A DNA stretch of 64,000 nt from Hysterangium stoloniferum. Lineage: Eukaryota > Basidiomycota > Agaricomycetes > Hysterangiales > Hysterangiaceae. The notes below the pieces were generated by a model. That model was given only the letters and a program-made list of their open reading frames with translations. It was not told where the DNA came from and made no database searches. Both the position numbers and the translations under genes were made by a program. The stretch is taken from assembly GCA_015178975.1 (NCBI GenBank), contig WHVD01000018.1:908001-972000 (forward strand), given 5' to 3'. The first letter of the stretch is position 1; each line of letters begins with the position of its first letter. Shown here piece after piece: positions 4,535 through 62,655 of this stretch.

Positions 4535-4680
4535 GAAATAAAGGTAGCAGCTAGCAAGGAAAGATCTCTTGGAAGATCAGTCCCCATTAAAGTCATTCAG
4601 GGGCAGTGGTACAAATGTGCACATGCAGGAAAATTGGCATCCACACCAAAATATGGTGGGAGTCCTTCATCATGTGACAT

Positions 4681-5054
4681 ATGGAGGGTAGTGGCATGCT
4701 ATGGAGGGTAGTGGCATATGGAGGGTAGTGGCATGCTATGGAGGGTAGTGGCATGCTATGGAGGGTAGTGGCATGCTATGGAGGGTAGTGGCATGCTATG
4801 GAGGGTAGTGGCATGCTATGGAGGGTAGTGGCATGCTATGGAGGGTAGTGGCATGCTATGGAGGGTAGTGGCATGCTATGGAGGGTAGTGGCATGCTATG
4901 GAGGGTAGTGGCATGCTATGGAGGGTAGTGGCATGCTATGGAGGGTAGTGGCATGCTATGGAGGGTAGTGGCATGCTATGGAGGGTAGTGGCATGCTATG
5001 GAGGGTAGTGGCATGCTATGGAGGGTAGTGGCATGCTATGGAGGGTAGTGGCAT
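4681..5054. repeat. 20-bp tandem satellite, about 19 copies
   Basis: The unit ATGGAGGGTAGTGGCATGCT is repeated almost without change; one early unit is 3 bp shorter. It sits between the copia RNase H remnant and the polypurine tract, so it is an expansion inside the 3' non-coding part of a retroelement. There are no spacers, so it is not a CRISPR array. Confidence 0.95.
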
Positions 5055-6208: not shown

Positions 6209-8013
6209 TGTTACGACCGTGTCGTAACCCATGTCGCAACCCGACGGTCCCCGAGAATACTACAGTCTATCGATGTTCCAAGTTATTGATCAAGTCATCA
6301 TTTCAGCAACCTTCGGAATACCGACACTGATGTATACCTTCACAGCGATCAAACCTTGTTTACCCCCCTGTCAAAATATACTCGTACCATCTGGTTATGC
6401 TTTGATACATCCCCTTTCATTATGATGATCTGTTTTACTCTATGTTTCACATATGCCCATATATACTTGTAGTCCGTGGACTATTCCCTTTTCTGGTAAT
6501 CCCACTCTCGGCTAAATCTCGGCTTCCGATCTTATCGTAACTTTCCGGTTTCTAGTCAAGTCTATTCATCAAATAGTGTTTCCGCTCTTCCCTTAGTTAG
6601 TAGTTTCTAGATGCTGACAACTCGTATATAAACCTGCTGTAAATGTAGTTATTAGACAATCAGAATATCAACTTAGATCGACTTAAATACCCCTCTAATT
6701 TCCAACTCCATTATCTATTCACGACCACCACATTCCGACTCCATCTGATTTACGATTCAACCTACATTTACGACTTCAACCTCTAATCTCTGACTCTCTC
6801 AGTCTCTGACTCTCTCAGTCTCTGACTCTCTCAGTTTCTGACTCTCTCAGTCTCTGACTCTCTCAGTCTCTGACTCTCTCAGTCTCTGACTCTCTCAGTC
6901 TCTGACTCTCTCAGTCTCTGACTCTCTCAGTCTCTGACTCTCTCAGTCTCTGACTCTCTCAGTCTCTGACTCTCTCAGTCTCTGACTCTCTCAGTCTCTG
7001 ACTCTCTCAGTCTCTGACTCTCTCAGTCTCTGACTCTCTCAGTCTCTGACTCTCTCAGTCTCTGACTCTCTCAGTCTCTGACTCTCTCAGTCTCTGACTC
7101 TCTCAGTCTCTGACTCTCTCAGTCTCTGACTCTCTCAGTCTCTGACTCTCTCAGTCTCTGACTCTCTCAGTCTCTGACTCTCTCAGTCTCTGACTCTCTC
7201 AGTCTCTGACTCTCTCAGTCTCTGACTCTCTCAGTCTCTGACTCTCTCAGTCTCTGACTCTCTCAGTCTCTGACTCTCTCAGTCTCTGACTCTCTCAGTC
7301 TCTGACTCTCTCTCAGTCTCTGACTCTCTCAGTCTCTGACTCTCTCAGTCTCTGACTCTCTCAGTCTCTGACTCTCTCAGTCTCTGACTCTCTCAGTCTC
7401 TGACTCTCTCAGTCTCTGACTCTCTCAGTCTCTGACTCTCTCAGTCTCTGACTCTCTCAGTCTCTGACTCTCTCAGTCTCTGACTCTCTCAGTCTCTGAC
7501 TCTCTCAGTCTCTGACTCTCTCAGTCTCTGACTCTCTCAGTCTCTGACTCTCTCAGTCTCTGACTCTCTCAGTCTCTGACTCTCTCAGTCTCTGACTCTC
7601 TCAGTCTCTGACTCTCTCAGTCTCTGACTCTCTCAGTCTCTGACTCTCTCAGTCTCTGACTCTCTCAGTCTCTGACTCTCTCAGTCTCTGACTCTCTCAG
7701 TCTCTGACTCTCTCAGTCTCTGACTCTCTCAGTCTCTGACTCTTAGTCTCCGACTCTTAGTCTCCGACTCTTAGTCTCCGACTCTTAGTCTCTGACTCTT
7801 GGTCTCCGACCCCTCAGCCCAACCCTCAACTGATCCTTCGGTTTCCGATCGGTAGTTTACCGAGAGGTTTACTTGACAGGACTAGTTTTCGCCTGCCCGA
7901 AATTTAAGGACACCCGACGGTAACTTGCGAGGGCGCAGCACATAAGCTGAAGCCAAGTCCTTCTGTTCGGTCCCCGTCGGCCAGCCGACATCCGTCAGTT
8001 TCTGCTCTTAACA
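6209..8013 (+). mobile_element. Solo LTR-B with giant internal minisatellite
   Basis: Starts TGTTACGACCGTGTCGTAAC and ends CTTAACA. It is flanked by perfect 5-bp direct repeats CAAGT (6204-6208 and 8014-8018). There is no internal region, so this is a solo LTR left by LTR-LTR recombination. A TATA box (TATATAAA, 6626-6633) lies upstream of the 16-bp minisatellite. Length is 1805 bp, against 658 and 891 bp for the LTRs of the element at 22447-30775; most of the difference is the minisatellite. Confidence 0.9.
6789..7740. repeat. 16-bp LTR minisatellite, about 60 copies
   Basis: Unit TCTCTGACTCTCTCAG, nearly perfect, with one slipped unit near 7312. It lies downstream of the LTR TATA box, so it would be in the transcribed part of the LTR. 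Confidence 0.95.
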
Positions 8014-22446: not shown

Positions 22447-23337
22447 TGTTAAGAACAGAAACTGACAGATGTCGGCTGGCTGACGGGGACCGAACGGAAG
22501 GACTTGGCTTCAGCTTATGTGCTGCACCCTCGCAAGTTACCGTCGGGTGTCCTTAAATTTCGGGCAGGTGAAAACTAGTCCTGTCAAGTAAACCTCTCGG
22601 TAAACTACCGATCAGAAACTGAAGGATCAGTCGAGGGTTGGGCTGAAGGGTCGGAGACCAAGAGCTGCAGACCAAGAGTTGGAGACTAAGAGTTGGAGAC
22701 TAAGAGTTGGAGACTAAGAGTTGGAGACTGAGAGAGTCGGAGACTGAGAGAGTTAGAGACTGAGAGAGTCGGAGACTGAGAGTCGGAGACTGAGAGTCGG
22801 AGACTGAGAGAGTCGGAGACTGAGAGAGTCGGAGACTGAGAGAGTCGGAGACTGAGAGAGTTGGAGACTGAGAGAGTTGGAGACTGAGAGAGTTGGAGAC
22901 TGAGAGAGTTGGAGACTGAGAGAGTCGGAGACTGAGAGAGTCGGAGACTGAGAGAGTCGGAGACTGAGAGAGTCGGAGACTGAGAGTCAGAGACTGAGAG
23001 TTGGAGACTGAGAGTCGGAGACTGAGAGTCGGAGATTAGAGGTTGAAGTCGTAAATGTAGGTTGAATCGTAAATCAGATGGAGTCAGAATGTGGTGGTCG
23101 TGAATAGATAATGGAGTCAGAAATTAGAGGGGTATCTAAGTTGATATTCTGATTGTCCAATAACTACATTTACAGCAGGTTTATATACGAGTTGTCGGCG
23201 TCTAGAAACTACTAACTAAGGGAAGAGCAGAAACACTATTTGACAAATAGACTTGATCAATAACCTGGAACATCGATAGACTGTAGTATTCTCGGGGACC
23301 GTTGGGTTGTGACATGGGTTACGACACGGTTGTAACA
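22447..23337 (-). mobile_element. 3' LTR-B
   Basis: 891 bp, TGTTAAGAACAG to GGTTGTAACA on the plus strand. It contains about 20 copies of a 16-bp GAGAGTCGGAGACTGA-type minisatellite (about 22730-23035) and TATA in reverse (TTTATATAC near 23180). The PPT in reverse (GTATCCCCATTTGGCC) follows at 23338. Confidence 0.9.
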
Positions 23338-30117: not shown

Positions 30118-30775
30118 TTTTAAGAACAGAAACTGACAGATGTCGGCTGGCCGATGGGGACCGAACGGAAGGACTTGGCTTCAGCTTATGTGCTGCACCC
30201 TCACAAGTTACTGTCAGGTGTCCTTAAATTTTGGGCAGGCGAAAACTAGTCCTGTCAAGTAAACCTCTTGGTAAACTACTGATTGGAAACTGAAGGATCA
30301 GTCGAGGGTTGGGCTGAGGGGTTGGAGACCAAGAGTTGGAGACTAAGAGTTGGAGACTAAGAGTTGGAAACTGAGAGTCGGAGACTGAGAGAGTCGGAGA
30401 CTGAGAGAGTCGGAGACTGAGAGAGTCGGAGACTGAGAGAGTCGGAGACTGAGAGAGTCAGAGACTGAGAGAGTCGGAGATTAGAGGTTGAAGTCATAAA
30501 TGTAGGTTGAATCGTAAATCGGATGGAGTCGGAATGTGGTGGTCGTGAATAGATAATGGAGTGGGAAATTAGAGGGGTATCTAAGTCGATATTCTGATTG
30601 TCCAATAACTACATTTACAGCAGGTTTATATACGAGTTGTCGGAAACTACTAACTAAGGGAAGAGTGGAAACACTATTTGATGAATAGACTTGATCAATA
30701 ACCTGGAACATCGATAGACTGTAGTATTCTCGGGGACCGTCGGGTTGTGACATGGGTTATGACACGGTCGTAACA
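30118..30775 (-). mobile_element. 5' LTR-B
   Basis: 658 bp. Its left terminus is TTTTAAGAACAG, a one-base change from TGTT. It contains only about eight minisatellite units (about 30372-30475), against about 20 in the 3' LTR. GGTCGTAACA ends it at 30775, followed by the GTATT duplication. Confidence 0.9.
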
Positions 30776-37235: not shown

Positions 37236-37715
37236 TGTCACGAATCGAATTTTACTCAATAAAGTTGAATAAACAATTGAAGAATATTCAACAATATTGA
37301 ATAAAGATGCCTCATTCGATGAAGTATTAATTCATCCTGTTGATAAAGCATGAGGCAAAGATAGAACACAGAGGCTCATGAATAATTAAGTTGAAGAAAG
37401 GCTCAGAAAAGTTTGACAATTATATAATACAGTAATAATATAATATAATACAGGTTTTCTGACTGACTTCCTTTGTTCCTATCATTGCCCTTATATACTA
37501 TATATCATTTACTTATGATGATAATATGATATCAAAGTGAAATCATCAATGATATCAAACTGAGACAAGTTGAAGATATTCAATATTGTCGAAGATATTG
37601 TCAAAGAATAGTTGAGTCGGAAGTCGAGTTGGAAATATGAGTTGGAAAGTTGAAGGAATGTCAAAGAAATATTAAGTTGAATATTATCAAAATTTGAGTT
37701 TGTATGTTCGTGACA
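37236..37715 (-). mobile_element. LTR-C, subfamily C1
   Basis: TGTCACGAATCGAATTTTAC to ATGTTCGTGACA, 480 bp, the same subfamily as the copy at 61974-62655 but without its minisatellite expansion. The right flank (GCTTG) does not match the left (GTAAC). Confidence 0.75.
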
Positions 37716-38153: not shown

Positions 38154-39503
38154 ATGTCGCAAGAACAGCCCGAAAATTCCAATAATCTTGTAGGGAGTAC
38201 TCATAACAATCGCAGATTTCCTTCCTAATATCCAAATAGCACGTGGAACGCTTTCGAATTTTGGTTATTGGCAACGCCAACGCTGGAAAGACAACCATTC
38301 TGAAAAAGGTGTGCCATGCCCAGGGTCGCGAACCGGTCTATCTAAATGTAGATCTGTGCCATACCTAACTGCAATATCCCTAATGCAGTTTACTTTATGC
38401 TTTTGTTACTTACCTGATGTAGAGCGATTCCAAGTTGGAGCCGTCGGCCTCGGTCTGTGTTGGATCGACTTGCACCTCCAGTGGTGGTGCGCTCATGATA
38501 ATTTTTAGCGCGGAAACCATGAGATCGAACACCAGTTTCAATATCCAACTGCTCACGGCTTCGTATTTCATGACTCCCGCGGGTTCGAAGCGGGTGGTGC
38601 TGTCGAACTGCAAAAAGTCAAGGACTTTATCGAAAACCGAGCAAAGGGTGGGCAATTAAAGGATCAATTGCATGCCATCTGGTGCGTGGAAGTTCTGTGT
38701 TATTTTTTCCACTTTCTGACTTTTGCGGTTCAGGTATTGCTTGCCAACTAGCAACGATAGAGGGATGACCAATGCGGAGATGAGTCTGTTCGAGAGCGGC
38801 ACGGGAAATGGTCAGCGAGTGTCTGCCTCATGAGCTGAGTTTACTGATTATCATCCAAGTCCCCATTATCGCCATTTTCACGAAGATGGATGCTCTGGAC
38901 CAGATGGCACGCAACCAGTTAATGTTTAATGACGATAACCTTTCTCGCGAAGAAATTGACGAGCAAGTTCCCAATGTGGCAAAGGCCATGTTTCAGGAGA
39001 AATACCTCAAACGACTCGATGAAGTAAAACACAAGCCTCGTTATGTCGTACTGCTCCGTGGTATGCTCCTTGTCGATGACACAGCAACCCGCTCACCCAT
39101 ACTGCTCAGACATGAACAAAGAGGATACTAATTGTGATGAGCTGATCGTGAGAACCTCACAGGCCCTTGACCGTGACACTCTGAAACTGTTCTGTCTGTC
39201 GATATTGCAGATCGACATTGAATCTCGTATCAAACAAGTTATCAACAGGTGAGTTCTCCGCCTTCAAAACAGACTGCCAATACATGGATATCCAAGGATA
39301 ATTATACCGCAGGTCCAAGGTGAGGGAGAATATAGCCAATGCAAGACATACTATTGAATTTGTGGGTATCGCTTTCCTCAGCTGTTCTCGAATCGGGCAC
39401 ATTTTCCGAAGAACAAGCAAAAGCCTTGTTCTGCAAGGTCATGTGTTGTTTTCCACACGTCTTGGTGCGAGAATGTTGTAACTCCTGCTCTTACACGTTT
39501 TAA
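38154..39503 (+). pseudogene. P-loop G-domain protein, eight exons, one-base frameshift
   Basis: Exons: 38154-38189, 38240-38347, 38423-38452, 38509-38681, 38734-38810, 38860-39060, 39110-39248 and 39313 on. The introns are 49-75 nt. VERFRILVIGNANAGKTT contains the Walker A/G1 (38270-38296). HDSRGFEAGG is the DxxG switch (38572-38598). IAIFTKMDAL is the TKxD base-recognition motif (38880-38891). These mark an MMR_HSR1/AIG1-like GTPase of a family I recall as expanded in Agaricomycetes. After TIEFV a run GTGGG (39362-39366) appears to contain one extra G. One frame runs on to 39481, while the expected C-terminal block (FSEEQAKALFCKV, FPHVLVRE) is in the other frame, ending at TAA 39501-39503. 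The intron/micro-exon array starts 6 bp later. Confidence 0.75.
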
Positions 39504-39508
39504 CGTTG

Positions 39509-42500
39509 GTAACAACAGGCCGTGAGTGACTCAAAGCTATCCTCTAATCATGTCATTCCCTGATATTTCATTGGTAGAGTGTGAGTGTCCATACATATGT
39601 TGACAATATCCGGAGATTATTGATTCCAGTATCTTGGCCTTTTAGTTTGTGAGTTGATCTTCCTTGGGATTGTCATTGCCTTATCTAACCTAACATCATT
39701 GCTTCTCAGCGGAATATAGGTCTATCTTGGGAAGTGTTATCATTATGTTGATCTCCACTTCTCCCTGCTCACCACAGAAAGTATGTAACACAATTCCACT
39801 GCAGTCTGCTTTTTCTATTCACAATCATTGAATTATTTTTTTATCATGTTTCCAGGTGGTGAGTATTTTAGCAAATATGATTATAATACTGCTCAAGCTA
39901 GTTTATCATCCACTGCCCTCTTTTAGATTGTGAGTATGGCTTCTTCATATTTGTATTTGGCTTGTGACATACTTGACAGGTGGTAAGCCCTTGCTGTTGT
40001 TTGAAGGCCGTGTAAGCTTCATCTGGTACATTGCCAATAGGATGTGAGTGTGTCTGCCCAGTTTCTCATATACTGGCTCATAACTGTTCCTGAAAAGTAC
40101 AATGTGGCAGATGGTGAGTCTTTTTGTACTGCATGGTCCTTTAGTGGCTTAATGACTTGTGGATGACTCAGGATGTAAGTATGCACACCCAATGCATAAA
40201 TAATTGATGGATACTAATAAGAGTATGATCCGACTGGTTTTAAACTGCACAGAATGTGAGTATGCTTATATGGTTATATTGAAGTTAACCTCATATGATT
40301 TTCACATTGTGAAAGAATGTAAATTCCCTCTGAGTTCTAATTACATACTTCATTCACTCACAGCAATTTTCTGCCTGCTTGGACTTGATAGGCTGTGAGT
40401 TGGAATATTCTCTGGATTTGGTTACTAAGAAATTCTAATACCATATTTGTAATGCTCAAACAGATTGATGTGAGTGTCTCTCCCAAACGACTATAGTATA
40501 CTTATTAAAAACTGTGTTTGAGATAGGCTGTAAGCACTGCCTATCCAAGGTTTGGAAACCAGTTCATGATACTTTGCTTTCATCTTACCAACAGACTGTA
40601 TGTGCTGTCCGGTTAAATGCATTGTCGAAGTCTGGATAACAATACTTATGCTCTTTTGTTGTGTGGATTACCTACAGAGAGTGAGTGTATCTGACTCTGT
40701 TGCATTCCATGGCTAAATGGGCTGTGGAAAATTTAGGAGGTTAGTCACATACTCACTGTCATGTATAAGTATGTATTATTGAGTGGTGGATTGATTGGAT
40801 GTAAATCAGAGTGTATGTGTTTTGCTTTTTGTACCAAATTGAAGAAGAGTACTCAATGGAATTTCTGTCCTGGGATTGCAGTTGGTGAGGATTCCTTGCT
40901 TGCTTGTAATCAGAATTATTATCACAAACTAAACTGACATCTTGAACAATTGTGGGGGTGGTCATTATAGGATGTAAGTTTTTCTGCCTTTTCTGCCCCT
41001 CATGGCTCATCTGCCTTGGCATGCTCTTCCCAGTTTGTGAGTTTCTGATTTTTTCCTCCTTCTCTGCCCCTCATGGCTCATCTCCTTTGGCATGCTCTTC
41101 CCAGTTTGTGAGTTTCTGACTTTGTCCTCCTTCTCTGCCCCTCATGGCTCATCTCCCTTGGCATCCTCTTCCCAGTTTGTGAGTTTCTGACTTTGTCATC
41201 CTCTGCCCCTCATTGCTCATCTCCCTTGGCATCCTCTTCCCAGGAAGTGAGTTTCTCTCCTTCTCTGGCCCTGGTGGCTCATCTGTTTTGGCATGCTCTT
41301 CCCAGGAAGTAAGTTTCTGACCTTTTCCTCTGTGTCTGGCCCTTATGATGTATCTCCCTTGCCATGTTCCCCAGCGAGTGAGTTTCTGACTTTTTCTCTT
41401 TCTCTGGCCCTCATGGCTAATCTCCCTTGGCATGCTCTTCCCAGTTTGTGAGTTTCTGACTTTTTCATCATTGTCTGGCCCTCATGGCTTATCTCCCTCG
41501 GCATGCTCTTCCCAGCGAGTGAGTTTCTGACTTGTCTCTCCTCTGGCCCTCATGGCTCATCTCCCTTGGCATGGTCTTCCCAGTTTGTGAGTTTCTGACT
41601 TTGTCCTCCCTGTCTGCTCCTCATGGCTCATTGCCCTTGGCATGCTCTTCCCAGGAAGTGAGTTTCTGACTTTTCCTCTTTGTCTGCCCCTCATGGCTCA
41701 TCTCCCTTGGCATGCTCTTCCCAGTTTGTGAGTTTCTGACTTTGTCCTCCTTGTCTGCCCCTCATGGCTCATCTCCCTTGGCATGCTCTTCCCAGTTTGT
41801 GAGTTTCTGACTTTGTTGTCCCCTTGTCTGTCCCTCATGGCTCATCTCCCTTGGCATGCTCTTCCCAGCAAGTGAGTTTCTGACTTTTTCCTCCTTCTCT
41901 GCCCCTCATGGCTCATCTCCCTTGGCATGCTCTTCCCAGGAAGTGAGTTTTGACTTTTTCCTCTTTGTCTGCCCCTCATGGCTCATCTCCCTTGGCATAC
42001 TCTTGCCAGCGAGTGAGATTCTGACCTTTTCCTCCTTCTCTCGCCCTGATGGCTCATCTCCCTTGGGATGCTCTTCCAGTTTGTGAGTTTTTGACCTTTT
42101 CCTCTTTGTCTGCCCCTCATGGCTCATCTCCCTTGGTATGCTCTTCCCAGCAAGTGAGTTTCTGACTTGTCTCTCCTCTGGCCCTCATGGCTCATCTCCC
42201 TTGGCATGCTCTTCCCAGTTTGTGAGATTCTGACTTTTTCATCTTTGTCTGCTCCTCATGGCTCATCTCCCTTGGCATGCTCTTCCCAGGAAGTGAGTTT
42301 CTGACTTTTTCCTCTTTGCCTGGCCCTCATGGCTCATCTCCCTTGGCATGGTCTTCCCAGGTTGTGAGTTTCTGACTTTGTCGTCCTTGTCTGTCCCTCA
42401 TGGCTCATCTCCCTTGGCATGCTCTTCCCAGGAAGTGAGTTTCTAACTGTGTCCTCCTTGTCTGCCCCTCATGGTGACTCATCTCCCTTGGCATGCTCTT

Positions 42501-44301
42501 CCCAGCGAGTGAGCTTCTGACTTTTCCCTGCTTCTCTGCCCCTCATGGCTCATCTCCCTTGGCATACTCTTCCCAGGAAGTGAGTTTCTGACTTTGTCAT
42601 CCTTGTCTGCCCTTCATAGCTCATCTCCCTTGGCATGCTCTTCCCAGATTGTGAGTTTCTGACTTTTTCTCCTTCTCTGGCCCTCATGGCTCATCTCCTT
42701 TGACATGCTCTTCCCAGGTTGTATGTTTCTGACTTTGTCCTCCTTGTCTGCCCCTCATGGCTCATCTCCCTTGGCATGCTCTTCCCAGGAAGTGAGTTTC
42801 TGACTTTGTCCTCCTTGTCTGCCCCTCATGCCTCATCTTCCCTGGCATGCTCTTCCCAGGAAGTGAGTTTCTGACTTTGTCCTCCTTGTCTGCCCCTCAT
42901 GGCAGCTCATCTCCCTTGGCATGCTCTTCTCAGCGAGTGAGTTTCTGACTTTTTCCTCCTTCTCTGCCCCTCATGCCTCATCTCCCTTGGCATGCTCTTC
43001 CCAGGAAGTGAGTTTCTGACTTTGTCCTCCTTGTCTGCCCCTCATGGCTCTTCTCCCTTTGCATGCTCTTCCCAGGAAGTGGGTTTCTGACTTTGTCCTC
43101 CTTGTGTTCCCCTCATGGCTCTTCTCCCTTTGCATGCTCTTCCCAGGAAGTAAGTTTCTGACTTTTTCCTCCTTGTCTGCCCCTCATGGCTCATCTCCCT
43201 TGGCATACTCTTCCCAGTTTGTGAGTTTCTGACTTTGTCATCCTTGTCTGCCCTTCATAGCTCATCTCCTTTGGCATGCTCTTCCCAGTTTGTGAGTTTC
43301 TGACTTTTTCTCCTTCTCTGGCCCTCATGGCTCATCTCCCTTGGCATGCTCTTCTCAGGAAGTGAGTTTCTGACTTTTTCCTCCTTGTCTGCCCCTCATG
43401 GCTCATCCCCCTTGGCATGCTCTTCCCAGTTTGTGAGTTTCTGACTTTGTCCTCCTTGTCTGCCCCTCATGCCCCATCTCCTTTGGCATATACTTCCCAG
43501 GAAGTGAGTTTCTGACTTTGTCCCCCTTGTCTGCCCCTCATGCCTCATCTTCCCTGGCATGCTCTTCCCAGGAAGTGAGTTTCTGACTTTGTCCTCCTTG
43601 TCTGCCCCTCATGGTGACTCATCTCCCTTGGCATGCTCTTCCCAGCGAGTGAGCTTCTGACTTTTCCCTGCTTCTCTGCCCCTCATGGCTCATCTCCCTT
43701 GGCATACTCTTCCCAGGAAGTGAGTTTCTGACTTTGTCATCCTTGTCTGCCCTTCATAGCTCATCTCCCTTGGCATGCTCTTCCCAGATTGTGAGTTTCT
43801 GACTTTTTCTCCTTCTCTGGCCCTCATGGTTCATCTCCTTTGACATGCTCTTCCCAGGTTGTATGTTTCTGACTTTGTCCTCCTTGTCTGCCCCTCATGG
43901 CTCATCTCCCTTGGCATGCTCTTCCCAGGAAATGAGTTTCTGACTTTGTCCTCCTTGTCTGCCCCTCATGCCTCATCTTCCCTGGCATGCTCTTCCCAGG
44001 AAGTGAATTTCTGACTTTGTCCTCCTTGTCTGACCCTCATGTTTCATCTCCCTTGGCATGCTCTTCCCAGGATGTGAGTTTCTGGCTTTGTCCTCCTTCT
44101 CTGCCCCTCATGCCTCATCTCCCTTGGCATGCTCCTCCCAGGAAGTGAGTTTTAGATTTTTTTTTCTCCCTGTTTCCCTCCCATGGCTTTTCTTCCTGGG
44201 TGCGATCTCCCTGTATTTTCAAATTGTTTCTATTTTCTATTTTTCTTTTGTTCTTTTCATTTATTGACAATTGTGTTGTCCTCATTCTTTTATTCCCTCA
44301 G
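39509..44301 (+). repeat. Intron/micro-exon array 1
   Basis: A chain of about 65 tandem units of 55-80 bp. Each begins with a 5' splice-site sequence (GTGAGT, GTAAGT, GTATGT) and ends with a 3' splice-site sequence (CAG or TAG). Successive units are separated by exactly 3 nt, sometimes 6. In 39519-41034 the units are unrelated in sequence (micro-exons such as AGT, TTT, AAA, GTG, ATT, GAT, ATG, AAT, GCT). From 41035 to 44141 there are about 45 copies of one unit starting GTGAGTTTCTGACTTTGTCC and ending GGCATGCTCTTCCCAG, with micro-exons TTT, GAA, CGA, CAA, GTT, ATT and GAT. I see no stop-codon triplet in this array. The last intron ends at a good acceptor, CCCTCAG, at 44301, before an exon. 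Confidence 0.85.
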
Positions 44302-44960
44302 GATTACTACTCCCAACAATGCTTTTTCTCTATCTCAACACATCCAATATATGAGGTGATAAACTTTGTCAATATCTACCTACTGGTTACCATTGGTTTA
44401 TTTAACCTCTCAGTCATGTTCTGACTTGCCCCAATGCAAGGTTGTCTGGCTTAGCATTGGTACTTTGCACTTGTTCAACTTGTTTCACCCTTTAACACAT
44501 AATTCTTAGCTGCCATGGTCATCAGTTGCCATTTGCTTGATGCTCCACCAAATTTGGACTTTCAGGAGACTGCTAACTCCTATATGGCTTCCTCAGCTAG
44601 GACTTTGGTAGATGATGTGAAGAAAGTATATCAGAAAGCAATTTCTTGTGGTAATGGAGACAGTGATGTGGTCTTTGATATAATGAAGAAGAATATCCTA
44701 GGTATGTTTCTTCCCCTTTGATTATCTGCTAGTGATGATACTTACTTGACCACTTGTGGTTGTTGTAGATTTTGCCATTTCTAGTCAGTATTAGCTCTCA
44801 TTTGTGCATTTCAGTATGTTATGGAAGACCAGGGGGAGTAACTTGCTGCCCATGTAAATGTTGCCTCATGTGTAACACATGTTCATGGTTTGAATACATC
44901 TGTCTCTGTATCTTGCAATTCTACAAATACTTTGGAGCTCCATCCATGTGGTTCTTCATG
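44302..44960 (+). CDS. Coding exons between the two arrays
   Basis: The first exon begins GATTACTACTCCC at 44302. A later frame from an ATG at 44515 reads VISCHLLDAPPNLDFQETAN, then TLVDDVKKVYQKAISC and DVVFDIMKKNIL, up to a GTATGT donor at 44702. After an acceptor near 44770-44817 a Cys-rich frame (GVTCCPCKCCLMCNTCSWFE) ends near 44979. Exon limits are approximate. The protein is not recognised. It is on the same strand as the upstream G-domain gene and both arrays, so all could be one transcription unit. Confidence 0.45.
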
Positions 44961-44964
44961 CACA

Positions 44965-47900
44965 GTAACAACAGGCTATGAGTGACTGTATGCTATCCTC
45001 TTATCATGTCATTCCCTGATATTTCATTGGTAGAGTGTGAGTGTCCATACATATGTTGACAATATCTGGAGATTATTGATTCCAGTATCTTGGCCTTTTA
45101 GTTTGTGAGTTGATCTTCCTTGTGATTGTCATTGCCTTATCTAACCTAACATCATTGCTTCTCAGTGGAATGTAGGTCTATCTTAGGGAGTGTTATCATT
45201 ATGTTGATCTCCACTTCTCCCTGCTCACCACAGAAAGTATGTAACACAATTCCACTGCAGTTCACTTTTTCTATCCACAATCATTGAATTATTATTATGT
45301 TTCCATGTGGTGAGTATTTTAGCAAATATGTTTATAATACTGCTCAAGCTATGTAGTTTATCATCCACTGCCCTCTTTTAGATTGTGAGTATGGCTTCTT
45401 CATATTTTTGTTTGGCTTCTGACATATTTGACAGGTAGTAAGCCCTTGCTGTTGTTTCAAGGCTGTATAAGCTTCATCAGGTATATTACCGATAGGATGT
45501 GAGTGTCTGCCCAGTTTTTCATATAATGGCTCATAACTGTTCCTGTAAACTACAATGTGACAGATGGTGAGTCTTTTTGTACTGCATGTTCTTTTAGTGC
45601 CTCAATGACTTGTGGATGACTCAGGATGTAAGTGTCATGAATCAAATTTTACTCAATAAAGTTGAATAAACAATCAAAGAATATTCAACAATATTGAATA
45701 AAGATGCCTCATTCGATGAAGTATTAATTCACCCTGTTGATGAAGTAAGAGGCTATTACCAGTCACAAGAACTCATGGAAGTGTTTGTCGAAGAAGTTAC
45801 GACAAGATAGATTATTAGTATCAGTAATTTACAGATATTTCAACTGACTTCTCTCGCTCCTTTTGTAGTCCTTTTATGCTTTTCTTCATATCGTTATGAC
45901 TATGTTATGAACTAATAATGAAATCATACATGATGTCCAAATGAGACATGTCGAAAGAGATTTGATGTTGTTGAATAATGTTCAGGTTTGTCGAGTCGAA
46001 TTTGATGTATTGAAGAGTTGTTGAAAGTTACCTTTGAATATTTGTGACAGTTGTGACAGTAAGTATGCACGTCCAATGCACAAATGATTGATGCACACTA
46101 ATAAGAGTATGATCCAACTGGTTTTAAACTGCACAGAAAGTGAGCATACTTATATGGTTATATTGAAGTTAACCTTATATGATTTCCACATTGTGAAAAG
46201 AATGTAAATTCTCTCTGAGTTCTAATTACATACTTCATTCACTCACAGCAATTTTCTGCCTGCTTGGACTTGATAGGCTGTGAGTTGGAATATTCTCTGG
46301 ATTTGGTTACTAAGAAATTCTAATGTTATATTTGTAATGCTCAAACAGGTTGATGTGAGTGTCTCTTCCAAACAACTATAGTATGCTTATTAAAAACTGT
46401 GTTGGAGATAGGCTGTAAGCACTGCCTATCCAAGATTTGGAAACCAGTTCATGATATTTTTTCATCTTACCAACAGACTGTATGTTTTGTCTGGTTAAAT
46501 GCATTGTCAAAGTCTGGATAACAATGGTTATGCTCTTTGGTTGTGTGGATTACCTACAGAGAGTGAGTGTATCTGACTCTGTTGCATTTCATGGCTAAGT
46601 AGGATGTGGACAATTTAGGAGGTTAGTCACATACTCATTGTCATGTATAGATATGTATTGAGTGGTGGATTGATTGGATATAAATCAGAGTGTATGTGAT
46701 TTGCTTTTTGTACCAAATTGAAGAAAGGTACTCAATGGAATTTCCATGTGGGATTGCAGGTGGTGAGGATTCCTTGCTTGCTTGTAATCAGAATTATTAT
46801 CACAAACTAAACTGACATCTTGAACAATTGTGAGGGTGATCATTATAGAATGTAAGTTTTTCTGCCTTCTCTGCCCCTCATGGCTCATTTCCCTTGGCAT
46901 GCTCTTCCCAGGATGTGAGTTTCTGACCTTTCCCCCTTCTCTGCCCCTCATGGCTCATCTCCCTTGGCATGCTCTTCCCAGTTTGTGAGTTTGTGACCTT
47001 TTCCTCCTTGTCTGCCCCTCATGACTCATCTCCCTTGGCATGCTCTTCCCAGCTTGTGAGTTTCCAACTTTGTCCTCCTTGTCTGCCCCTCATGGCTCAT
47101 CTCCTTGGCATGCTCTTCCCAGCTTGTGAGTTTCCAACTTTGACCTCCTTGTCTGCCCCTCATGGCTCATCTCCCTTGGCATGCTTTTCCCAGCCAGTGA
47201 GTTTCTGACTTTGTCCTCCTTATCTGCCCTTCACCACTCCTCTCCTTTGGCATGCTCTTCCCAGGGAGTGAGTTTCTGACTTTGTCCTCCTTGTCTGCCC
47301 CTCATGGCTCATCTCCCTTGGCATGCTCTTCCCAGGAAGTGAGTTTCTAACTTTATCTGCCTTGTCTGCCCCTCACCCAGTCTGTAAGTTTCTAACTTTG
47401 TCCTCCTTCTCTGTTACTCATGACTCATCTCCTTTGGCATGCTTTTCCCAGCGAGTGAGTTCTGACTGTGTCCTCCTTCTCTGTCCTCATGACTCATCTC
47501 CTTTGGCATGCTTTTCCCAATGAGTGGGGTTCTGACTTTGTCCTCCTTGTCTGCCCCTCATGGCTCATCTCCATTGGCATACCCTTCCCAGATTGTGAGT
47601 TTCTGACTTTGTCCTCATTGTCTGCCTCTCACAGCACATCTCCCTTGGCATGCTCTTCCCAGTTTGTGAGTTTCTGACTTGGTCCTCATCTGCCCCTCAT
47701 GGCTCATCTCCATTGGCATGCTCTCCCCAGGAAGTGAGTTTCTGACTTTGTCCTCCTTGTCTGCCCCTCAAGGCTCCTCTCCCTTGGAATGCTCTTCCCA
47801 GTTTGTGAGTTTTCTGACTTTGTCCTCCTTGTCTGCCCCTCATGGCTCATCTCCCTTGGCATGCTCTTCCCAGCTTGTGAGTTTTCTGACTTTGTGCTCC

Positions 47901-48560
47901 TTGTCTGCCCCTCATGACTCATCTCCATTGGCATCCTCTTCCCAGTTTTGAGTTTCTGACTTTGTCCTCCTTGTCTACCCCTCATGACTCATCTCCCTTG
48001 GCATGCTTTTCCCAGTGAGTGAGTTTCTGACTTTGTCCTCCTTGTCTGCCACTCATAGCCCATCTCCCTTGGCATGCTTTTCCCAGCCAGTGAGTTTCTG
48101 ACTTTGTCCTCCTTATCTGCCCTTCACCACTCCTCTCCTTTCGCATGCTCTTCCCAGGGAGTGAGTTTCTGACTTTGTCCTCCTTGTCTGCCCCTCATGG
48201 CTCATCTCCCTTGGCATGCTCTTCCCAGGAAGTGAGTTTCTGACTTTGTCTGCCTTGTCTGCCCCTCATGGCTCACGTCCCTTGGCATGCTCTTTGCAGA
48301 TTGTGAGTTTCTGACTTTGTCCTCTTTGTCTGCCCCTCATGACTCATCTCCATTGGCATGCTCTTCCCAGTTTGTGAGATTCTGACTTTGTCTGCCTTAT
48401 CTGCCCCTCACAGCTCATGTCCCTTGGCATGCTCTTCCCAGCCTGTGAGTTTCTGACTTTGTCCTCCTTGTCTGCCTCTCATGACTCATCTCCTTCGGCA
48501 TACTTTTCTCAGCCAGTGAGTTTCTGACTTTGTCCTCCTTGTCTGCCCCTCATGGCTCAT
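44965..48560 (+). repeat. Intron/micro-exon array 2
   Basis: Starts with the same GTAACAACAGGC as array 1 and repeats its diverse units in the same order (44965-46860 against 39509-40990). About 24 copies of the 72-bp unit then follow (46860-48520) with micro-exons GAT, TTT, CTT, CCA, GGA, GAA, TCT, CGA, ATT and CCT, and one TGA near 48016. Two units have lost their AG (near 45306 and 47520). A solo LTR-C interrupts it at 45633-46058. Confidence 0.85.
45633..46058 (-). mobile_element. Solo LTR-C2 inside array 2
   Basis: 426 bp, TGTCATGAATC to GTTGTGACA, with perfect GTAAG duplications (45628-45632 and 46059-46063). The corresponding place in array 1 (around 40168) is uninterrupted (AGGATGTAAGTATGCAC), giving a natural empty site. 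Confidence 0.95.
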
Positions 48561-48565
48561 CTCCA

Positions 48566-49208
48566 TTTCCATTGGCACCATTCATTGTCTACACTTTTAA
48601 CAATATCTTGCATGATGGTGCCACACACCTTACTGAACTTACAGATATCTTGGCACATATTGTGAGGTCCATATGCCATATGCATAAACTGTCTCTGGAT
48701 GAACTGTGTGCACTTCAATTGTACCTTCAGTTTTGGATACAACCATGTGTCCCTTCTTCTGATTCTCACCTCTTGGTGAATTGAACTGTATTGCCAGAGC
48801 CTATTGCAATAAGCCATCGAACTTTCATGTCATCTTTTCATCAAGATCCATGATTTGAGAATATTTCGAGGTTCAATGACAATATACCAACAGCAGATAT
48901 ATCCACTTCTATCGAAACAAGGAAGTATCTGTGTATTAGACCTAGTGGTCAAGCCCCTCTTACAGTCTTGCAGATGTGGTGTTAAAGGTACAAACATTGG
49001 TATGCCAGTGGTTAATATTCCAAGACATCAAACCATTAGACCATGGTCTGTGGGAGGATGTGTTCATACTTCCGATCAATCCAGTAAAGGGGTCAAAGTT
49101 GCAATTTGCAGAATATATTATTTTGCATGGCAGGTCCTTCCCAAGGGGTACAACACTGGAAACAACCCCCACTTCAAAAATCTAAAGGACCTTAGTAGAA
49201 GCTTGTAA
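48566..49208 (+). CDS. Coding exons after array 2
   Basis: The frame reads PLAPFIVYTFNNILHDGATH, LTELTDILAHIVRSICHMHK and LSLDELCALQLYLQFW, ending at TGA 48782-48784; it has strong coding character. The last array unit merges into it without its CCCAG acceptor. Further on, two overlapping frames (48855-49208 and 48976-49185) are open; LWEDVFILPINPVKGSKLQF looks the more natural. No family recognised. It may be the 3' end of the same gene as 44302-44960. Confidence 0.4.
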
Positions 49209-61973: not shown

Positions 61974-62655
61974 TGTCACGAACATACAAACTCAAATTTT
62001 GATAATATTCAATTTAATATTTCTTCAACATTTCTTCAACATTCCTTTGACTTTCCGACTCAATTTCTGACTCGACATCTGACTCAACTATTCTTCGACA
62101 ATATCTTTGACAATCTCGAATATCTTTGACAATCTCGAATATCTTTGACAATCTCGAATATCTTTGACAATCTCGAATATCTTTGACAATCTCGAATATC
62201 TTTGACAATCTCGAATATCTTTGACAATCTCGAATATCTTTGACAATCTCGAATATCTTTGACAATCTCGAATATCTTTGACAATCTCGAATATCTTTGA
62301 CAATCTCGAATATCTTTGACTTGTCTCAGGTTGATATCATTGATGATTTCACTTTGATATCATATTATCATCATAGGTAAATGATATATAGTATATAAGG
62401 GCAATGATAGGAATGAAGGAAGTCAGTCAGAAAACCTGTATTATAATTATATTATTACTGTATTATATAATCGTCCAACTTTTTCCGAGCCTTTCTTCAA
62501 CTTATTTATTCGTGAGCCTCTGTGTCCTATCTTTGCCTCATGCTTTATCAACAGGATGAATTAATACTTCGTCGAATGAGGCATCTTTATTGGATATTGT
62601 TGAATATTCTTCGATTGTTTATTTGACTTTATTGAGTAAAATTCGATTTGTGACA
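61974..62655 (+). mobile_element. Solo LTR-C1 inserted in the transposase
   Basis: 682 bp, TGTCACGAACATAC to ATTTGTGACA, with perfect GATTG duplications (61969-61973 and 62656-62660). The TATA box TATATAAGG lies near 62393. It includes an expanded 19-bp minisatellite. The reading frame of the transposase is in register on both sides once the insert and one duplication are discounted, so insertion is recent relative to frame decay at this point. Confidence 0.95.
62095..62320. repeat. 19-bp minisatellite in LTR-C
   Basis: Unit CAATCTCGAATATCTTTGA, about 12 copies. It is absent as an array from the C1 copy at 37236-37715, where only loosely similar GATATTGTC units occur. Confidence 0.95.

What the first reader, a model, noticed from the sequence alone, without database searches (positions are those of the whole stretch)
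39509..48560. Two long arrays of tandem intron-like units separated by single-codon micro-exons
Seen: across about 8 kb nearly every unit reads GTRAGT...(C/T)AG, then exactly 3 nt (or 6), then the next GTRAGT. Units in the first 1.5 kb of each array are unrelated in sequence to each other, so the pattern is not just a copied satellite. Later units are about 70 copies of one roughly 72-bp intron-like monomer. The micro-exons are multiples of three and, in the units I read, almost never stop codons (one TGA in array 2). Consequence (inference): any number of units could be spliced, retained as codons or skipped without changing the frame. Recursive splicing, 3-nt micro-exons and introner elements are known separately; a satellite built of consecutive introns with codon-sized exons is not something I know of.
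Basis: partly seen in the sequence, partly recalled or inferred. Interest (0 to 1): 0.95.

Follow-up and report, generated by a model that had tools for sequence, protein, structure and literature searches.

The report
Gene split into single-codon exons
In this mushroom-relative's genome, long stretches of protein appear to be spelled out by dozens of consecutive exons that are each just one codon long, with an intron between every two codons, in two unrelated gene families.

Summary
In 39,500-48,600, 78 of 83 GTRAGT lie exactly 3 nt after a YAG. A splice-only model with free exon length picks 3-nt exons in 57 of 62 cases; 0 of 15 on the other strand, 0 of 130 in control windows. Array 1 is the middle of a GTP-binding-protein gene of Hysterangium stoloniferum: 9 ordinary exons, 66 micro-exons (65 of 3 nt, one of 6), 4 ordinary exons, 462 codons in one open frame, 78 introns. 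Decisive point: the first micro-exons spell PSFNKLIVDMDKNAVDATRESVD (consensus of copies), 19 of 23 residues identical to a contiguous protein of unidentified source (200,000 shuffles: best 11). Two more such proteins run through stretches like those the 71-bp array encodes. Fourteen copies give 1,050 micro-exon codons with 2 stops (48 expected). Array 2 is a displaced remnant. An unrelated ankyrin gene family has the same architecture. Splicing is inferred: no RNA of this species was available. Ten literature searches gave no precedent. Origin is unresolved: identical introns often separate different codons.

The parts
38154..39464 (+). 5' part of gene 1: nine ordinary exons (38154-38189, 38240-38347, 38423-38452, 38509-38681, 38734-38810, 38860-39060, 39110-39248, 39297-39319, 39382-39464), 290 codons, G-domain GTP-binding protein ending ...CCFPHVL in phase 0
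   Evidence: spliced by script, open; relatives among P0001-P0031; 217/319 identical to P0016, E 2e-159
39465..40970 (+). diverse intron units; micro-exons at 39519-39521 ... 40882-40884 spell A S F K V I V D M D N N A ID A T R E S L (consensus of 19 copies PSFNKLIVDMDKNAVDATRESV). Unit 4 has a broken donor (ATAGGT at 39716) and is skipped in the model
40971..44144 (+). last diverse micro-exon GAT (40971-40973), then 71-bp intron+codon monomers; single-codon exons 41034-41036 to 44142-44144; codons mostly GAA and TTT, then CGA, GTT, CAA, ATT. The GAA at 43929-43931 is followed by ATGAGT, not GT
44145..44301 (+). last array intron (157 nt), GTGAGT...CTCAG
44302..44794 (+). 3' part of gene 1: four exons 44302-44355, 44414-44459, 44510-44701, 44769-44794; ends ...VVFDIMKKNILDFAISSQY*
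   Evidence: open frame; a 3' module lies behind the array in 17 of 20 fetched stretches; part of it is annotated apart as 70-aa BU17DRAFT_85476 = P0122
44970..48564 (+). array 2: displaced copy without the 5' gene; first donor ATGAGT, two TGA micro-exons, 3 of 22 diverse junctions broken (array 1: 1 of 22), monomer junctions 1 of 18 broken (array 1: 1 of 41); nearest to paralog L009 (97.3%), not array 1 (93.5%)
45637..46058 (.). 422-bp insertion in array 2, flanked by a 6-bp direct repeat GTAAGT that duplicates a donor

Best explanation
The window holds a protein-coding gene whose middle is split so that nearly every codon is its own exon. Ordinary U2-type introns, mostly 50-80 nt, are removed one after another. 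Because a 3-nt exon can hardly hold splicing complexes on both sides at once, removal is probably sequential, each splice bringing the next donor up to a longer exon (inferred from general knowledge of the spliceosome). The first ~22 micro-exons encode a conserved segment (PSFNKLIVDMDKNAVDATRESVD). The 71-bp monomers add about 14 to 74 further residues (14 copies), a fast-changing stretch rich in F, E, D, R, Q and L. Ordinary exons then finish the protein. Skipping a unit only drops one residue, so lengths can vary and single damaged units are tolerated. Shown: sequence pattern, conserved splice signals, open frame, identity of micro-exon residues with contiguous proteins, many paralogs, a second unrelated gene family. 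Inferred: splicing in this species, order of removal, translation, function of the variable stretch.
For: Spacing and free-length splice model. Micro-exon consensus matches P0016 at 19 of 23, P0010 at 17, P0013 at 15; in 200,000 shuffles each, none reached the observed value (maxima 11, 9, 10). P0121, found with a profile that held these residues but not P0121, is contiguous across the same segment (41/69 identical with the array-1 product, E 2e-24) and runs on through MTEDVFRFDFDELRRRVFRFQQRRRLRFDDL. That segment and P0127's score +20.9 and +43.0 bits for the array's residue make-up, against at most -23.9 and -52.7 elsewhere in the same proteins (segments picked by eye). W1 chain: 462 codons, no internal stop. 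Fourteen of 16 copies tried gave a full chain; 1,040 of 1,047 introns GT-AG. Two stops in 1,050 micro-exon codons, 48 expected, minimum 27 in 2,000 column shuffles. In 19 copies the GT and AG letters differ in 0.5-2.9% of pairs, intron interiors in 13.4%. 5' exons pN/pS 0.36. P0025 ends ...CFPHML-PS-VSVLA and P0017 ...CFPHML-P-VRIAIL, as if an intron (GTGAGTGT..., GTGCG...) had been kept right after a micro-exon codon (my reading of protein letters). Second family: 91 of 102 and 73 of 83 exons = 3 nt, 0 of 76 and 0 of 64 on the other strand, 0 stops in 196 codons (18.8 expected).
Against: No RNA from H. stoloniferum was available. That the jgi proteins are spliced transcripts is inferred from short contigs (1-2 kb) and uninterrupted frames; I could not see their DNA or source. 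Array 1 itself has two units with broken donors (39716, 43932). The product of the 3' exons is not matched to P0016 or P0121 by pairwise BLASTP; their kinship rests on position, frame and a few motifs in an alignment. Micro-exons of the conserved part show no excess of synonymous change (0.165 observed, 0.259 expected) and are only slightly more conserved than intron interiors (10.6% against 13.4%). P0016's variable stretch scores only +2.5 bits (highest elsewhere -12.0). Of the 14 chained copies 11 are free of both micro-exon stops (L009, L024 have one each) and 5' frame breaks (L015). Monomer junctions of the remnant array 2 are hardly more broken than those of array 1 (1 of 18 against 1 of 41).
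Confidence: 0.9

Rival explanations
1. The array is spliced out as one long intron, or as a few large ones, and the micro-exons are relics without use.
For: Public annotation ended paralogous genes before the array and called the 3' exon of this one a separate gene (P0001 255 aa, P0122 70 aa). Outer splice sites exist.
Against: The micro-exon residues match contiguous related proteins, P0121 and P0127 carry the variable stretch, stops are nearly absent, and internal GT/AG stay conserved across paralogs.
Confidence: 0.06
2. A decaying satellite derived from one intron plus 3 nt, with splice signals inherited from the founder unit and no gene function.
For: Array 2 looks like such a remnant; the monomers are 71-bp tandem repeats; monomer junctions in array 2 are still mostly intact (17 of 18).
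Against: The diverse units are largely unrelated in sequence yet keep the 3-nt spacing. In 883 monomer junctions each AG and GT letter is kept in 881-882 while the three codon letters are the most variable. Stops are depleted.
Confidence: 0.02
3. Nested or recursive splicing: stwintrons or zero-length recursive exons rather than true 3-nt exons.
For: Each junction sets an acceptor next to a donor, as in recursive sites.
Against: Spacing 0 occurs in 0 of 83, and the 3 nt are codons of the protein. Stwintrons split a splice signal of an outer intron, which I did not see.
Confidence: 0.02

Closest known systems
Schistosome micro-exon genes (MEG)
   Same: many short exons, mostly multiples of three, between introns; hard for automatic annotation (abstract and one passage seen, PMC10526429)
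   Different: the passage gives 6-81 bp, mostly 15 bp (the abstract says 3-81); here dozens of exons of exactly 3 nt in a row, and the introns form a tandem satellite
Aphid bicycle and megacycle genes
   Same: fast-changing gene family recognised by many micro-exons, megacycle more than 100 (passages seen, PMC9168663)
   Different: internal exons there are almost all phase 2, about 17 exons a gene on average; megacycle about 2,000 aa; here phase 0 and one codon each
Single 3-nt exon of Drosophila homothorax; 1-nt exon of Arabidopsis APC11
   Same: show that exons of 3 or 1 nt can be spliced (abstracts seen, PMC7392893, PMC4674806)
   Different: one isolated exon in the gene described
Introners / introner-like elements
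   Same: copies of one intron at many positions (start of abstract and passages, PMC9860276)
   Different: those insert into many genes; here in arrays at every codon, with no sign of a 3-bp target duplication (neighbouring codons alike in 0.151, as at other distances)
Stwintrons
   Same: fungal introns in direct neighbourhood (search listing and starts of abstracts only)
   Different: one intron inside a splice signal of another; here a codon lies between

Membership tests
U2-type spliceosomal introns | GT-AG ends | tested here: met
   1,040 of 1,047 introns in 14 gene models; the chain builder favours such ends, so
U2-type spliceosomal introns | branch-point-like YTNAY 8-50 nt before AG | tested here: inconclusive
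   present in 20 of 22 diverse consensus introns and in the monomer, but no shuffle control was run
U2-type spliceosomal introns | removed from RNA | not testable with these tools
   no RNA data for this species
Micro-exon genes (schistosome MEG) | exons multiples of three | tested here: met
   57 of 62 exons 3 nt and one 6 nt with free exon length
Micro-exon genes (schistosome MEG) | exon size 6-81 bp, mostly 15 bp | tested here: not met
   3 nt in 57 of 62 with free length; 1,016 of 1,033 in chained models, which allow 3, 6, 9
Micro-exon genes (schistosome MEG) | secreted product | not tested
   no signal-peptide search was run
Aphid bicycle genes | internal exons in phase 2 | tested here: not met
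   the micro-exons follow a phase-0 exon end and are multiples of three
Introners | near-identical introns at different sites | tested here: met
   511 pairs of units with identical introns, 299 of them between loci
Introners | spread over many unrelated genes | tested here: inconclusive
   listed matches of the 71-bp array lie on contigs that also gave gene-family matches, but only about half of 321 matches were listed
Stwintrons | inner intron splits a splice signal of an outer intron | tested here: not met
   nearly every unit has its own donor and acceptor with 3 nt between
G-domain GTP-binding protein family of Agaricomycetes | sequence kinship and P-loop domain | tested here: met
   217/319 identical with P0016, 648 relatives; Pfam GTPase models reach P0016 and P0001 only below their cut-offs

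The most novel reading that the evidence does not exclude
A genome in which coding sequence can be held as one-codon cassettes: satellites of intron plus codon, arisen separately in at least two gene families (GTP-binding proteins, ankyrin proteins), where introns are copied or homogenised almost independently of the codons between them, so that recombination in the introns reorders, adds and drops single residues and yields hypervariable protein stretches without frame damage. The same arrangement probably occurs in other ectomycorrhizal fungi whose annotated proteins stop at the same place.
Probability: 0.4. Interest if true: 0.97.

Novelty: categorically new. Interest (0 to 1): 0.95.

Why it matters
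It would be the extreme of gene fragmentation: tens of consecutive exons of one codon each. It asks how the spliceosome handles adjacent introns only 3 nt apart, shows that annotation can miss a large part of a gene, and offers a natural system for intron spread and for making variable protein stretches one residue at a time. Because a conserved part and a variable part lie side by side in about twenty paralogs, splicing order, tolerance of skipped units and origin of the introns can be tested directly. The parts (U2 introns, 3-nt exons) are known; the serial arrangement is what I rate as new.

Tried and rejected
Coiled coil: the 499-bp higher-order period (7 x 71) suggested heptads, but hydrophobicity and charge of the array codons show no positive peak at lags 3, 4 or 7 (largest deviation there: charge at lag 4, z -2.2).

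Simple growth by copying one unit next to itself and then mutating: introns of neighbouring units are no more alike than distant ones (0.88-0.89 at lags 1 to 25) and about as alike between loci (0.876) as within (0.886). Of 511 pairs with identical introns 399 have different codons, 169 at all three letters. Block copies exist and carry codons along: 12 distinctive runs, 66 units, 45 same codon, misses often at the first unit of a run; yet even there codon letters differ in 43 of 198 and intron letters in 38 of 4,464; 76 other runs had 55 of 325 units with the same codon. Codon difference exceeds intron difference in each of 14 copies (JC ratio 5.5-25.6). So either introns came between older codons or codons are under very strong diversifying selection in a recombining pool; I could not decide.

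A rule that codons NYA are shunned because they make a new YAG: it fits family 1 (16 NYA, 315 NYT) but not family 2 (GCA alone 11 of 196); dropped as a general rule.

Array-less paralogs: of two G-domain loci outside the array list, L029 has seven micro-exons and then foreign sequence, L030 shows no array in the 5 kb fetched.

A scan of viral contigs for the last exon (P0125) found no relative. AlphaFold of P0016: GTPase part confident, residues from about 291 on at pLDDT 53 or less per block of ten, so no fold search was made.

Literature: ten full-text searches listed no report of serial one-codon exons; the library holds only open papers, and I saw listings, abstracts and passages, no whole paper.
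Full report
What the window is. The window is G000:C90:908001-972000 of a 111-Mb genome in 554 contigs. The product of the exon at 44,510-44,701 matches P0122, hypothetical protein BU17DRAFT_85476 of Hysterangium stoloniferum, at 100%, on a contig of 1,016,692 bases, the length of C90.

The pattern is real. In 39,500-48,600, 78 of 83 GTRAGT lie exactly 3 nt behind the nearest YAG, 2 at 6 nt; elsewhere 1 of 9 and 0 of 12 on the + strand and 2 of 33 on the - strand. With generic splice weights and free exon length, 57 of 62 exons in array 1 are 3 nt; 0 of 15 on the reversed strand; 0 of 130 in seven control windows. A genome-wide pattern for three GTRAGT joined by two such steps gives 744 matches, 45 for the pattern read backwards; only the first hundred or so were listed.

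It is a gene family. The diverse part (40,200-41,000) has 28 matches in the genome, two of them in the window. I fetched 20 further stretches from that list, not all of it. In 17 of these 20 the 5' G-domain region matches, in 17 the 3' module, not the same 17. Protein searches gave 25 G-domain places (one weak) and 22 3'-exon places. Loci with both ends share one plan: G-domain exons, about 22 diverse intron units, a 71-bp array of varying length, 3' exons.

The micro-exons are codons. The exon before the array ends ...CCFPHVL in phase 0. Read in order, the consensus of 19 copies is PSFNKLIVDMDKNAVDATRESVD. The jgi proteins P0016, P0010 and P0013, found by a query without these residues, continue after FPHML with PSFDKLINDMDKNAVNAMRESVD, PSFNKLILNMDKNAVAATMKSVI and PSFNELVDNLDKNAVKATTESVV: 19, 17 and 15 of 23 identical; no shuffle of 200,000 reached these. 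Array 1's own version scores 14, 12 and 10, other copies up to 20. P0019 reads PTFDNLIHNMGENAIDAS and P0121 PSFDNLIQDMDNNAVDATTESIN. P0121 and P0127 also hold MTEDVFRFDFDELRRRVFRFQQRRRLRFDDL and LQRFFQLFQFELRQLFEFQERERFQFQERQLRQQLQALAGRRGEFGEFE, the residue palette of the H. stoloniferum arrays (+20.9 and +43.0 bits against at most -23.9 and -52.7 elsewhere in these proteins; P0016 +2.5, P0019 +12.4; segments chosen by eye). Their contigs are 1-2 kb and their frames run without a break over the positions of the Hysterangium introns, so I take them for transcripts; their DNA was out of reach.

The gene model. Array 1 gives 9 exons, 66 micro-exons and 4 exons, 1,389 nt with the stop, 462 residues, 78 introns (8 in the 5' part, 67 in the array, 3 in the 3' part). 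One unit (donor ATAGGT at 39716) is skipped in the model and one micro-exon (43929-43931) is followed by AT; without it the frame stays open (461 residues). The last intron, 44,702-44,768, follows the public model P0122. Public annotation has such genes in two pieces: GTP-binding proteins of 237-255 aa (paralogs P0001-P0005) and 70-aa proteins (P0122-P0124).

The copies. I tried to chain 16 of 22 array sequences (left out: W2 as a remnant; L012, L018, L022, L027, L028 as incomplete or split). Fourteen gave a full chain with 36 to 96 micro-exons; L021 and L026 lacked the 3' anchor. The chain builder allows exons of 3, 6 or 9 nt only, so exon length is not evidence there, but stops are: 2 of 1,050 codons (both TGA) against 48 expected from base frequencies; minimum 27 in 2,000 within-copy column shuffles. 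1,040 of 1,047 introns are GT-AG. 5' exons: pN 0.049, pS 0.136 over 78 pairs, L015 left out for a frame break; 3' exons pN 0.124, pS 0.205 over 91 pairs.

Conservation. In the diverse part of 19 copies, GT and AG letters differ in 0.5-2.9% of pairs, micro-exon letters in 10.6%, intron interiors in 13.4%. Micro-exon changes are not biased to synonymous (0.165 against 0.259 expected), perhaps because the third letter is also the last exon base before the donor.

The variable array. Among 665 monomers (of 1,033 units; the rest were of other length or too unlike), the three codon letters are the most variable columns (1.82, 1.63, 1.23 bits; next 1.21). Within copies codon letters differ in 61.7% of comparisons, intron letters in 11.4%. 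Of 511 pairs of units with identical introns, 399 differ in codon. Intron likeness hardly falls with distance in the array and is nearly the same between loci. Block copies carry most of their codons, though even there codons differ more than introns. This fits introns copied or converted between older codons, or a recombining pool under strong selection for different codons. I favour neither firmly.

A second family. A pattern search met chains of another monomer (3 of 25 matches, the other 22 a simple repeat; pattern read backwards 10). L031, L032 and L033 (C24, C542, C209) carry that monomer; in L031 it follows ankyrin-repeat exons (Pfam Ank_2 1.6e-21), which end ...ELFDLLLNKNVNA, after a frame with hydrophobic segments (by eye). 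Free-length model for L031 and L032: 91 of 102 and 73 of 83 exons are 3 nt, 0 of 76 and 0 of 64 on the other strand; chains of 101 and 86 micro-exons with 0 stops in 196 codons (18.8 expected; ends chosen by me, 3' ends of the genes not reached). The first residues KFFG(N/K)ERFEAY recur as KFFENERFEVY in L033. The two monomers show no kinship (local score 18; shuffled 15.6 +/- 3.0, highest 25). A fourth place, C507, is a fragment. A GTATGT pattern found nothing. So this is not a freak of one gene.

Other species. Proteins of Amanita muscaria (P0011, P0015) and Russula decolorans (P0008) end ...FPHM(L/S)VRICS, which looks like reading into an intron beginning GTGCG..., as in H. stoloniferum (GTGCGAGAATGT). 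P0025 (...PSVSVLA) and P0017 (...PVRIAIL) look like transcripts that kept an intron right behind a micro-exon codon. P0125 and P0126, from contigs of 47 and 79 kb, begin with other residues just before TEAIADFC, where P0016 is continuous, so an intron probably lies there, close to that of W1. All this is inference from protein letters.

Mechanism. Ordinary splicing of short introns one at a time is enough. Adjacent introns can hardly be engaged at once (general knowledge), so removal should be stepwise. A lost donor or acceptor costs one residue, not the frame. The use of the variable stretch is unknown; length and residues differ even among close paralogs (L010 and L011, 96.8% alike in the diverse part), which would suit a recognition or interaction surface, but this is a guess.

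Novelty. Isolated 3-nt and 1-nt exons are known (PMC7392893, PMC4674806; abstracts seen), as are genes of many micro-exons (PMC10526429, PMC9168663; passages seen). Ten searches of the held library listed no report of serial one-codon exons.

Noticed in passing
L031 1-9901, L032 1-8001, L033 1-3893: Second, unrelated gene family (ankyrin repeats, 73-bp monomer) with the same one-codon exon arrays; four genomic places (C24, C542, C209, fragment C507).
   Followed up: partly
45637-46058: 422-bp insertion with a 6-bp direct repeat GTAAGT in array 2; similar-looking sequence seems to lie near 37,500-37,700 (by eye, not tested).
   Followed up: partly
44970-48564: Array 2 is nearest to paralog L009 (97.3%), about 245 kb away on the same contig, not to array 1.
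   Followed up: yes
6787-7799, 22675-23028, 30332-30480, 4680-5054, 62100-62320: Other tandem repeats: 16-bp unit x 64; a 16-bp unit AGAGTCGGAGACTGAG at two places; 20-bp x 19; 19-bp x 12.
   Followed up: no
P0011, P0015, P0008 (Amanita muscaria, Russula decolorans): Annotated proteins end right after FPHM(L/S) with VRICS, as if reading into the intron that opens the array; the array may exist in these genera too.
   Followed up: partly
L027-L028; L029 after 1594: Arrays interrupted by long foreign sequence (about 10.5 kb between the two pieces in L027/L028).
   Followed up: no
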